A stretch of 51,190 nt of DNA, taken from assembly GCF_000338295.1 (NCBI RefSeq), contig NZ_ANMO01000025.1, positions 1 to 51,190 on the forward strand, written 5' to 3'. Below are positions 9,892 to 13,352 of the stretch, one piece after another. The notes under the pieces were generated by a model. That model was given only the letters and a program-made list of their open reading frames with translations, was not told the origin of the DNA and searched no databases. The DNA is from Rhodopirellula europaea 6C. Its GTDB lineage: Bacteria > Planctomycetota > Planctomycetia > Pirellulales > Pirellulaceae. A program made the translations under genes and the position numbers. How positions within the stretch are numbered: position 1 is the stretch's first letter; each line of letters begins with the position of its first letter.

Positions 9892-10063
9892 CCCGCTCGT
9901 TGGCCATTCGTAGACTTGACGGGTTTCCGACCAGCAATTCTCGACGAAATTCGCCCACGCCGGCCAGCAATCGCTCGCCGGCATCTTTTTTTCGTTGATC
10001 TTTTCCGTCATTCATCTCTTCCGCGAACCTTCTTTCTACGTCCAACAGGGACACCCGCCGCTC

Positions 10064-10927
10064 ATGGACCAAGCGATTGCGAAAGCCGACACCCTCATCG
10101 AAGCGATGGGTTGGATCCGCCGTTTCCGAGGCAAAACGACCGTCATCAAACTCGGCGGCAGCCTGCTCGAGGACCGAGAGGCCCTGCAGCACTTGCTGCT
10201 GGATGTGATCTTCATGGAAACCGTCGGCCTGCGTCCTGTCGTGGTTCACGGCGGCGGCAAAGCGATCACGGAAGCAATGGCCAAAGCCGGCATCGAAGCC
10301 CAATTCATTCGCGGGCGACGGGTGACGGACGAGAAATCGCTGGAGGTCGTCGAACAGGTCCTCGCGGGAGAACTCAATGTCGAATTGACCGAAATGATGG
10401 AACGGTTTGGTGGTCGCGCTGTCAACTTGTCGCCTCGAACCACGTGTGTCCTGAAAGGCAAGAAGCTGATCGATTCCGAAGGCGACGACCTTGGCTTCGT
10501 TGGTGAAGTGACCGAGGTCGATCGTGACGTGATTGAAAGCTTGGCATACACCGACCAAGTCGCCGTGATCCCTTCTTTGTGCACGGATGAAAAAGGGCAA
10601 CTGTACAACGTCAATGCAGACACCGCCGCGATGGCGGTCGCTCAATCCTTGGGAGCGGACAAACTCGTGTTCTTGTCGGACGTCAACGGAGTTCGCCGAG
10701 ACCCCAAAGATCCCGAGACAATCATTCCAGCGTTGTCGGCCGAGGAAGCTCGCCAATTGATTGCCGATGGTGTGATTCAGTCCGGCATGATCCCGAAGGT
10801 CGAAGCCTGCTTGGAAACACTCGGTCGTGGCGTTCAGAAAGTCCACATCATTGATGGACGACTGCGTCACTCATTGCTGCTCGAAATTTTCACCACCGAC
10901 GGTGTGGGCACGGAGATCCACCAGTGA
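10064..10927 (+). CDS. argB: N-acetylglutamate kinase
   Basis: ArgB phosphorylates N-acetyl-L-glutamate in the second step of arginine biosynthesis. In 287 residues the amino-acid-kinase fold shows [10 protein letters not shown] near the N-terminus, [30 protein letters not shown], the [20 protein letters not shown] core, [14 protein letters not shown] and [17 protein letters not shown] 10064 is chosen over an in-frame ATG at 9995 because the first 23 residues of the longer form do not look like ArgB. Its stop overlaps the GTG of the ArgD-like gene (GTGA), so translation is probably coupled through to argF. Confidence 0.95.
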
Positions 10928-12414
10928 ACGCGTCCGGCAACGGCGATGCCCCTCGCGGCGACAATTGGATCAATGCGATTGCAGGACGTCTCTCTCCGAC
11001 AGGTGAGAACTCGTTCCGGGATGCCTTGCGTCAATTCGCAGATCAACCCGAGTGGTGCGGCGATGCTGACCTGCGAACCAAGATCACGGAGCAACTGCGC
11101 ACGCTGACCAACGCGGATGCTTCAACGCTCGCTGATTGCATTCCAACTTCTTCGCGAGACCAAGCACTCGAACATGCTTTGATCGCGGCTCGTCGACGTC
11201 ATCTGTCACAACACGATGCGGAAGACGCGGCCGCCGAGAATGCATCGGCGCCAAAGTGCCTTTGTTTGGTAGGCAGTGATCACGGACGCAGCATCGTTGC
11301 GAGAATGGCGAGCGGCAAACCAACGTTGCGAGGCAACGAGTGGCCCCTGCTGCCTGGCTTCGTGCACGCGCCGGCGGAACGCTTCGTCGACAAAATCGAT
11401 TCATCAACCGCGGTCGCTTTGGTCGCTCCGGTGGACTTCAGCGGAGTCGGCCAGCCATTGACCGCTGAATGGTGGGCTCGATGCCGTCAACGATGTGATG
11501 AAACGGGCACGCAATTGATCGTCGATCATGGTGACACTCCCGCAGCCGGGAACGGCTACTTCTTTGCTCATGAAATGGTCGCCGGAATCTCTGCCGACGC
11601 GGTCATCCTTTCGGCCGGCTTGGTCGGCGACCTTCCTGGCGGCATGTTGGTTCTATCGGAATCGCTCGCATCGCATCTCGACCAAACCGCTCATTCCAGT
11701 GACTTGGTTGGACATCTTGTTTCCGCCGCACTGTCGACGCTGATTAAAACCGACGCTCTTGCCACGGAAGCGGACGCGTTCGCCATCGCTCTGGCTGAAC
11801 GAATTGCCACCCGCGGGTGCGTCCGAGACCTGCATGCCTGCGGGCACACCGTGATCTTGGAATTGGATGTCGAATCTCAAGCTTGGATCGATCAATCCGC
11901 GGCGGAACAACTGCACGCCGATGTTTGCAGCGAACATTCGGTCCTGTTCCAACCTCCGTTGCTGATGACGGCCGAACAACGGGAAATCCTGATCGACCGA
12001 ATCGATGCGGTGCTGGCGGGGTTGGAAGGAACTCAGGAGTCAACGGAAGCAACCTCATCGGCGGAAACTGAATCGGATCCGATGGAGGAACCCGCTGACG
12101 AAGCCCGACCCGACGAAGCCCAACCCGACGAATCGCCAGTCGACATTTCACTTGATGCGGATATCGATGAAGCCGCATCTGCGGAAGATTCGGACGAAGA
12201 GCTGGATGACGACGAAGACGATGACGATGAGGCAATCGAAGAGGACGAACTCGACGACACGGCCGATGAAGAATCGGCTGAGGAAGATGAAACGGACGAC
12301 GAAGTCGTAGGCGGCGATGAAGACGAAGAGCACGAAACCGAACAAGAAGAAACTGAACTGGAAAACAACGAACTGGACGAGTTCGAATCCAACGAGGAAA
12401 CGGAGAAACTTTGA
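10924..12414 (+). CDS. ArgD-like aminotransferase pseudoenzyme with acidic C-terminal tail
   Basis: A 496-residue protein aligned by eye with class-III acetylornithine aminotransferases (ArgD): [20 protein letters not shown] and LLPGFVHAP match the FHGRTLA...LPPGF block, [20 protein letters not shown] matches the DEVQTGxGRTG...FAHE block, and [17 protein letters not shown] matches VRGxGLMxGIEL. The PLP lysine of the usual AKGLGGG is Ala at 231 ([13 protein letters not shown]). The SGTEA phosphate-binding loop is also replaced (PTSSRDQA). Asp201 survives. Transamination therefore looks impossible. Residues from about 380 to 496 are an Asp/Glu-dominated tail. It sits where argD often sits, overlapping argB and argF, so a regulatory or scaffolding role in arginine synthesis is my inference. 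Confidence 0.8.
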
Positions 12415-13352
12415 TGCGACACTTGCTCACACTCTTTGATCTGACCCCGCAAGAGTTGCGTCAGATTTTGGCAACCGCACAAACCCTCAAATCCAAATTG
12501 AAACAGGGCGAACGGCCCGCCATTTTGGAACGCTACACGCTTGCGTTGTTGTTTGAAAAACCAAGCTTGCGAACCCGTGTCAGCTTTGAGACCGGCATGA
12601 ACCATCTCGGTGGCAGCAGCTTGTTTCTGGGCGACGATGTCGGTTGGGGCAAACGCGAATCACCGTCTGACTTCACTCGCGTGTTGGGACAATTTGTCGA
12701 CGCGGTTGCGTGTCGAGCGAAATCACACGAACGTGTTGAACAGTTGGCGGAATACAATGCTGTCCCGATCATCAACAGCTTGACCGATCTCTGTCATCCT
12801 TGCCAAGCAATCGCCGATGTGTTGACGTTGCTGGAGAATTTTGGCGAAGTCAAAGATCGCCACATGGTTTTCGTTGGCGACGGCAACAACGTTTCGCGAT
12901 CACTCGCTCTCGCGTGTGCGATGCTGGACATTCAATTCACGCTCGCACGTCCGGATGGGTACGAACTCGACCAACCATGGCTCGATCGAATCGGTGAGAA
13001 ATATCCCAACGCGAAAATGAATCAAACGGCCGATCCGATTGCCGCGGTCGAAACCGCTGATGCGATCTACACCGACGTTTGGACCAGCATGGGGCAAGAA
13101 GCCGAATCCATCGCTCGACGAGCCGCTTTCAAGAATTTCCAAGTCAATGAACAGCTACTCGAAGCGGCCCCAAAGACCGCTCGAGTGCTGCATTGCTTGC
13201 CCGCCGTGCGAGGCGAGGAGATCACCGACGCGGTCATGGATGGTCCACAAAGCGACGTGATCGAACAGGCGGGCAATCGAATGCACGCCCAAAAGGCTCT
13301 GATGATTCAGCTCCTGCGACCCGAGTGGATCGCAGAAAACATCAGCGTTTAA
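12414..13352 (+). CDS. argF: Ornithine carbamoyltransferase
   Basis: ArgF makes citrulline from ornithine and carbamoyl phosphate. The 312 residues carry the carbamoyl-phosphate motif as [13 protein letters not shown], then [49 protein letters not shown] for the ornithine side and [11 protein letters not shown] near the C-terminus. ATG 12414 overlaps the TGA of the ArgD-like gene (TGATG), so it is coupled to argB and its neighbour. Length is normal. It ends 28 bp before the stop of the convergent secreted-protein gene. Confidence 0.96.

What the first reader, a model, noticed from the sequence alone, without database searches (positions are those of the whole stretch)
10924..12414. ArgD-like pseudoenzyme embedded between argB and argF
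Several blocks of class-III acetylornithine aminotransferase are readable ([55 protein letters not shown]). The PLP lysine position reads Ala (LSAGLVGD at 229-236) and the SGTEA phosphate loop is gone, while the cofactor-ring Asp201 is kept. The gene overlaps argB by GTGA and argF by TGATG, where argD often lies. I infer a non-catalytic subunit that may regulate or scaffold arginine synthesis. An active argD should exist elsewhere in the genome.
Basis: partly seen in the sequence, partly recalled or inferred. Interest (0 to 1): 0.85.

Follow-up and report, generated by a model that had tools for sequence, protein, structure and literature searches.

The report
ArgD-derived pseudoenzyme between argB and argF
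In Rhodopirellula-type bacteria the gene in the usual place of an arginine-synthesis enzyme has lost its active site yet is kept by selection, while a distant cousin gene has probably taken over the chemistry.

Summary
ORF 10924-12414 (496 aa) is a degenerate class-III acetylornithine aminotransferase (Pfam 4e-11; AlphaFold pLDDT 87.8; nearest folds ArgD-like) overlapping argB and argF. The PLP lysine is Ala231; the SGTEA loop, partner-subunit Thr and substrate Arg are lost; Asp201 is kept.

It is not a one-off. Of 199 family genomes, 44 (9 genus codes) carry this form; 43 of 44 loci show both argB and argF. Lys is absent in 44/44, Asp present in 44/44. The gene tree favours one origin from the resident argD. 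The core is under purifying selection (dN/dS 0.10-0.14 against near relatives), with new residues conserved where canonical ArgD is invariant (Phe119 to Asp, Tyr148 to His).

The expected active argD was not found: 0/44 such genomes pass the ArgD model (85/199 overall). argC and argJ are intact, and R. baltica grows on glucose plus ammonium. An unassigned class-III aminotransferase ("D") with ArgD-type residues is in 43/44 and is the best replacement candidate; this is correlation, confounded by kinship.

Most likely a non-catalytic accessory or ligand-sensing protein made with ArgB and ArgF; partner and ligand are unknown. No report was found in the papers searched.

The parts
9995..10927 (+). 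argB, N-acetylglutamate kinase (longest listed start TTG 9995; ATG 10064 used for comparisons)
   Evidence: Sequence reading; orthologues at 57-95% identity beside the slot in relatives.
10924..12039 (+). Pseudo-ArgD, folded core (residues 1-372)
   Evidence: Pfam match 111-364; AlphaFold of 10924-12063, pLDDT 87.8, pTM 0.88, residues 1-12 below 50; dN/dS 0.098-0.137 against the four nearest relatives.
11275..11286 (+). S118-D119-H120-G121: replaces GFHG, the ring-stacking Phe (role recalled) is Asp
   Evidence: Ser118 in 37, Asp119 in 38, His120 in 40, Gly121 in 43 of 43 orthologues; canonical Gly, Phe, His, Gly 13/13.
11524..11526 (+). Asp201, cofactor-ring Asp position, kept
   Evidence: 44 of 44 orthologues, 13 of 13 canonical rows.
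11614..11616 (+). Ala231 at the PLP Schiff-base lysine position
   Evidence: No Lys in 44 of 44; Ala 32, Gly 5, Ser 4 of the 43, one Glu and one Gln.
12040..12414 (+). Polyacidic tail (residues 373-496) and stop; up to 75% Asp+Glu in 40 aa
   Evidence: dN/dS 0.28-0.62 against the five nearest relatives, much laxer than the core.
12414..13352 (+). argF, ornithine carbamoyltransferase (ATG 12414, one-base overlap; alternative TTG 12411)
   Evidence: orthologues downstream of the slot.

Best explanation
The gene is the vertically inherited argD of the argB-argD-argF cluster, which lost its PLP chemistry in an ancestor of a Pirellulaceae clade, most likely once, and was kept as a pseudoenzyme. Shown: loss of Lys, SGT loop, Thr and (in the window) the substrate Arg and N-terminal arm; one origin in the gene tree; purifying selection; new residues conserved at some former cofactor-site columns; no ArgD over cut-off in the same genomes; argC and argJ over cut-off in those tested. 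Inferred, fairly likely: acetylornithine transamination is done by another class-III aminotransferase, best candidate 'D'. Inferred, about even odds: the protein is a non-catalytic accessory subunit, made with ArgB and ArgF, that binds a small ligand in the former cofactor pocket and tunes or holds together arginine-synthesis enzymes; the acidic tail is a fast-changing flexible appendage.
For: Lys and phosphate-loop residues lost in 44/44 orthologues and kept in 13/13 canonical rows (12 genomes); Lys also in 20 of 20 further canonical loci. argB and argF flanks in 43/44 loci (L173 ends before argB). All 36 pseudo-sequences used form one side of a branch against 29 canonical ArgD, SH-aLRT 100. 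Core dN/dS 0.10-0.14, argB 0.02-0.04, argF 0.04. Columns conserved differently from canonical ArgD, among them 118, 119, 231 and 343. ArgD over cut-off in 0/44 pseudo genomes, 85/199 in all. argC and argJ over cut-off in 25/25 genomes, 21 of them with the pseudo-form. R. baltica SH1 cultured with glucose as sole carbon source and ammonium chloride (PMC2754498, passages). D in 43/44 pseudo genomes, 56/68 with neither form, 28/87 with canonical ArgD; D keeps Lys, Asp, Gln, Glu, Thr and the C-terminal Arg in 6 of 6 sequences aligned.
Against: No partner, ligand or phenotype is known. The gene was lost again in at least four genomes of one genus (g60), so it is dispensable there. Core dN/dS is 2.5 to 6 times that of argB and argF. 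With two further canonical genera in the ArgB+ArgF tree the pseudo group is not a single clade, though the forks that split it are not starred. The ArgD-D association rests on few events: 3 independent pairs on starred branches, sign test not significant. Twelve genomes lack ArgD, pseudo-ArgD and D; seven of them are 82% complete or less, G088 is 94% complete, four were not shown. Several pseudo genomes outside the R. baltica group hold other class-III proteins below the ArgD cut-off (to 341 bits, G080) that could also serve. Asp201 may be kept only as a structural partner of His120 (recalled from other fold-type-I enzymes).
Confidence: 0.66

Rival explanations
1. Repurposed pocket outside arginine synthesis: the fold gained a new ligand or a new, PLP-free chemistry (candidates SDHG 118-121, H148, C191, D201, D315, Q343) and stays in the operon by inheritance. 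(Odds of this list are not exclusive of the composite best explanation.)
For: New residues conserved across 9 genus codes, some at former cofactor-site columns; spacers instead of overlaps in other genera.
Against: Only class-III aminotransferases lead the sequence and fold lists; in the arginine cluster in all 44 loci found. That the residues line one cavity was not measured.
Confidence: 0.2
2. Slowly decaying relict, or a spacer kept only so that ribosomes pass from argB to argF.
For: Overlaps on both sides in the window; missing in four g60 genomes with argB next to argF; faster evolution than neighbours; a frame break in one genome of the genus (G012).
Against: Core dN/dS about 0.1, 8 of 343 columns identical in all 43 orthologues, retention over 9 genus codes, confident fold.
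Confidence: 0.12
3. Non-catalytic half of a heterodimer with aminotransferase D, as LCB1 is for LCB2 in serine palmitoyltransferase (recalled).
For: D accompanies 43/44 pseudo genomes; class-III enzymes are dimers with shared active sites (recalled).
Against: The TFGGNP loop, and in the window's genus the N-terminal arm, which serve the partner's site (recalled), are lost; D is common without the pseudo-form: 56 genomes with neither form, 28 with canonical ArgD.
Confidence: 0.08
4. Still an acetylornithine transaminase by an unusual mechanism without lysine.
For: Position in the operon and no ArgD over cut-off elsewhere.
Against: In the window Lys, phosphate loop, Thr, ring-stacking Phe, Glu, Gln and substrate Arg are all gone.
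Confidence: 0.02

Closest known systems
Acetylornithine aminotransferase ArgD (TIGR00707; 1vef, 2eh6, 2pb0)
   Same: Fold (TM 0.77-0.80), operon slot, cofactor-ring Asp, HG motif
   Different: No Lys, SGT loop or Thr; in the window no substrate Arg and no N-terminal arm; 59 bits against a cut-off of 410; acidic tail
TSB-like, plant tryptophan-synthase-beta pseudoenzyme (PMC12727527; abstract and outline seen)
   Same: PLP-enzyme relative without catalysis in amino-acid metabolism, derived from the pathway's own enzyme
   Different: Other PLP fold type (recalled), a noncatalytic paralogue of TSB, with a demonstrated partner (TSA); here the only ArgD descendant found, partner unknown
LCB1 of serine palmitoyltransferase (recalled)
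   Same: Fold-type-I subunit without the PLP lysine
   Different: LCB1 pairs with its catalytic sister LCB2; no sister enzyme in the operon here
PDX1.2 pseudoenzyme of vitamin B6 synthesis (only a reference-list title seen in PMC6522883)
   Same: Non-catalytic relative kept in a pathway
   Different: Other fold and pathway (recalled)

Membership tests
ArgD / acetylornithine transaminase | Class-III aminotransferase fold | tested here: met
ArgD / acetylornithine transaminase | Score over curated ArgD cut-off | tested here: not met
   58.8 bits against 410; 78 against 457
ArgD / acetylornithine transaminase | Schiff-base lysine | tested here: not met
   Ala231; no Lys in 44/44
ArgD / acetylornithine transaminase | Phosphate-binding SGTEA loop and partner-subunit Thr | tested here: not met
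   (the Thr column lies in a gapped stretch)
ArgD / acetylornithine transaminase | Cofactor-ring Asp | tested here: met
   Asp201, 44/44
ArgD / acetylornithine transaminase | C-terminal substrate-carboxylate Arg (RLLP; role recalled) | tested here: not met
   Leu341 (VLFQPP) in the window, Phe342 in the alignment; Arg in part of the other pseudo-sequences
ArgD / acetylornithine transaminase | argB-argD-argF slot of this order | tested here: met
Pseudoenzyme | Homologue of an enzyme without essential catalytic residues | tested here: met
Pseudoenzyme | Kept by selection as a protein | tested here: met
   dN/dS about 0.1 in the core
Pseudoenzyme | No catalytic activity, other function shown | not testable with these tools
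   Needs purified protein
LCB1-like heterodimer subunit | Stable complex with a catalytic paralogue | not testable with these tools
   No complex prediction on hand
ArgD replacement by D | D carries ArgD-type catalytic residues | tested here: met
   6 of 6 sequences (His of the HG motif is Ala in D)
ArgD replacement by D | Association with ArgD loss beyond phylogeny | tested here: inconclusive
   Fisher 1.7e-16 ignores kinship; 3 independent pairs, not significant

The most novel reading that the evidence does not exclude
A pathway enzyme was replaced by an aminotransferase of another subfamily and its orphaned original was rebuilt in place into a ligand sensor: the former PLP pocket, with a new SDHG/H148/D201/Q343 set, binds an arginine-pathway metabolite and sets the activity or assembly of ArgB and ArgF, with a polyacidic tail acquired on opposite ends in different genera.
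Probability: 0.28. Interest if true: 0.82.

Novelty: new variant of a known kind. Interest (0 to 1): 0.62.

Why it matters
Relatives show four states of one story side by side: canonical argD in the slot, canonical argD plus a second aminotransferase, pseudo-argD, and an empty slot. That makes the fate of a displaced pathway enzyme directly testable. It also points to a gap in a textbook pathway in a model planctomycete: a Rhodopirellula that grows on glucose and ammonium appears to make arginine without a recognisable ArgD. Automatic annotation by the slot or by weak homology could misname this protein as an aminotransferase.

Tried and rejected
Chance similarity: rejected. Another lysine at the PLP position: rejected by alignment. 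Sequencing error or single-strain oddity: rejected by 44 orthologues. Catalytic argD elsewhere under the usual model: not found in own genome or genus. BioA, EctB (both of G004) and HemL (own genome) as the hidden ArgD: each is over its own equivalog cut-off and shows no Arg at the ArgD substrate position in the alignment. In-frame stops reported in argC matches: in the one locus read, L225, it is the terminal stop. Polyacidic tails as a general habit: no other open frame of 150 aa or more in this window has one; not tested genome-wide. One search printed wrong frames for L005 and L040, and for all five of its proteins; none was used, D was read. Not examined: class-I/II aminotransferases, and the further class-III proteins of G001, G003, G008, G010 and G012.

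The presence lists typed into one search come from the positives printed; those outputs cut their lists of negatives and weak matches. Of 24 genomes with neither form given to, 17 gave argB; of these 13 show argB next to argF, L207 looks like a pseudo-ArgD start at a contig end (so possibly a 45th), L212 is a canonical ArgD at a contig end, L216 and L222 show no argF in the flank.

Full report
What is there. The ORF at 10924-12414 is real and sits as described, with GTGA and TGATG overlaps to argB and argF. Its residues 111-364 match Aminotran_3 (4.2e-11); the best named families are acetylornithine transaminases, but far below their cut-offs. AlphaFold with 18 aligned sequences gives pLDDT 87.8 and pTM 0.88 for the best of five models. 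Foldseek's first hit is the Thermus ArgD 1vef (2.4e-24, TM 0.77); the 50 hits shown are ArgD, ornithine, succinylornithine and putrescine aminotransferases and scaffolds built on the last. In the window's genus the N-terminal arm of canonical ArgD is absent: the core begins where canonical YLDFFPGW lies; some other genera keep a stretch before it.

What is lost. Against canonical ArgD: Lys is Ala231, SGTE is SRDQ (77-80), the ring-stacking Phe is Asp119, Glu of EPIQ is Ala168, Gln of DEVQ and Arg of GRTG are gone, the TFGGNP Thr is gone, and Arg of RLLP is Leu341 (in one search Phe342 falls there; residue roles are recalled from solved ArgD work). Across the 44 pseudo-sequences the last Arg and the Gln are kept in some, Lys in none. 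Asp201 is kept in all. It need not mean cofactor binding: in fold-type-I enzymes this Asp pairs with the His of the HG motif (recalled), and His120 is mostly kept too (40 of 43).

How widespread. Of 60 relatives, 58 match. Loci were fetched for 30 of them: 13 genus genomes and G023 and G025 (two other genera) hold the degenerate form, the other 15 a canonical gene with Lys (L032 reaches neither argB nor argF). In 199 genomes of the family (code f1; named copies are Pirellulaceae) the core profile A1 found 141 matches at 1e-10; 44 are counted as the pseudo-form (129.9 bits or more and no ArgD over cut-off), over nine genus codes. Named carriers: Rhodopirellula solitaria, R. rubra, Aporhodopirellula aestuarii, Neorhodopirellula pilleata, R. 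maiorica, R. sallentina. In a phylum sample 2 of 392 genomes match at 1e-38, both of this family (the weakest pseudo-forms would miss that threshold). Lys is absent in 44 of 44, Asp present in 44 of 44, and all 13 canonical rows keep both; 20 further canonical loci all have Lys.

History. In the tree of slot proteins all 36 pseudo-sequences used are one side of a branch against 29 canonical ones (SH-aLRT 100, quick search; three long branches, so attraction is possible). In the ArgB+ArgF tree of 76 rows the pseudo group needs 2 changes, consistent with one origin and loss in four g60 genomes. With 87 rows it needs 3: three canonical genomes of genera g7 and g89 fall inside the same starred clade, beside the g52 pseudo-forms at unstarred support. 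One origin from the resident argD is therefore most likely; two are not excluded. Two further lineages have argB next to argF without a gene between.

Selection. Against the four nearest relatives (L008-L011) core dN/dS is 0.098-0.137, argB 0.019-0.043, argF 0.038-0.046; the tail gives 0.28-0.62 with L012 included. More distant pairs are saturated and not relied on. Fourteen of 343 core columns are conserved in the pseudo-forms with a residue other than the nearly invariant canonical one, among them Asp119 (38/43 against Phe 13/13), Ser118, Ser130, Gly131 (42/43 against Ala 13/13), His148 (41/43 against Tyr 13/13), Ala231, Gln343 and Ser24. This looks like remodelling rather than plain decay.

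The acidic tail. 21 of 44 carry a 40-residue stretch of at least 60% Asp+Glu: 10 C-terminal, all in the window's genus, and 11 N-terminal, in g14 and g69; others have weaker stretches or none (N-terminal lengths are stop-to-stop and upper bounds). So the tail arose, or moved, more than once, and is not essential to the core.

Who does the chemistry. The own genome has no ArgD over cut-off, nor has any of the 44. In G004 the five class-III matches are BioA, EctB, HemL, D and the pseudo-ArgD (BioA, EctB and D of G004 and HemL of the own genome were scanned). Other pseudo genomes have more class-III proteins under the ArgD cut-off, up to 341 bits in g69 and 300 in G008, not assigned. argC and argJ are over cut-off in 25 of 25 genomes tested, the own included, so acetylglutamate semialdehyde should be made and acetylornithine used. 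R. baltica SH1 was grown in mineral medium with glucose as sole carbon source and ammonium chloride (PMC2754498, passages seen); that G004 is R. baltica SH1 is my recall of its genome length. D has no named family (best 161 bits against a cut-off of 574) but keeps Lys, SG, Phe, Glu, Asp, Gln, Thr and the C-terminal Arg in 6 of 6 sequences; in the own genome it is split over two contigs. D is in 43 of 44 pseudo genomes, 56 of 68 with neither form, and 28 of 87 with canonical ArgD (85 over cut-off and 2 contig-edge fragments). D-positive genomes with canonical ArgD stand next to each lineage without ArgD on the tree, which suggests that D came first, but independent events are few. A class-I/II aminotransferase as substitute was not examined.

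Mechanism. Shown: no PLP-type transaminase site in sequence, selection on the core, co-location with argB and argF. Inferred: accessory function. Co-production with ArgB and ArgF makes these the first partners to test; loss of segments that complete a partner's active site speaks against a simple heterodimer with D. My odds: not a PLP transaminase 0.96; functional protein 0.87; acts on arginine synthesis about 0.5; D is the acting acetylornithine transaminase about 0.6.

Literature. Searches for Rhodopirellula with acetylornithine aminotransferase (0 papers), Planctomycetes arginine terms (listing only), pseudoenzyme with aminotransferase and PLP (listing), Pirellulaceae with arginine, biosynthesis and auxotroph terms (listing), and acetylornithine aminotransferase with pseudoenzyme (1 paper, a B. 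subtilis survey; passages seen) showed no report of this protein. GapMind (PMC7311316, passages) has no word beginning with planctom, pirell or gemmata in its main text. Most subscription papers are outside this library. The nearest described case by logic is TSB-like in plants (PMC12727527, abstract and outline).

Noticed in passing
L208-L211, L213-L215, L217-L221, L223: argB lies next to argF with no gene between in 13 loci of the family; these genomes also have no ArgD over cut-off elsewhere.
   Followed up: partly
L199:4127-5521 (G004) and orthologues: Unassigned class-III aminotransferase 'D', in 127 of 199 family genomes, no curated family over cut-off; candidate acetylornithine transaminase.
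   Followed up: partly
window 12388-12414: The last residues (NEETEK) of the pseudo-ArgD stay constant in the nearest relatives although the tail varies; the purine-rich codons may serve as ribosome-binding site for argF (inferred).
   Followed up: no
L017 / L074 (R. sallentina): Pseudo-ArgD read in two frames in one draft genome: a frame break or a sequencing error; not mended.
   Followed up: no
L180, L183, L184, L185 (g52): Least derived pseudo-ArgDs, with Ala, Glu, Ser and Gln at the lysine position and partly kept PIQ/DETQ-like motifs; possible intermediates, or a second origin.
   Followed up: partly
G080, G125, G194, G211, G216 (g69); G008, G025: Further class-III aminotransferases at 288-341 bits to the ArgD model, under its cut-off, in genomes with the pseudo-ArgD; function not assigned.
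   Followed up: no
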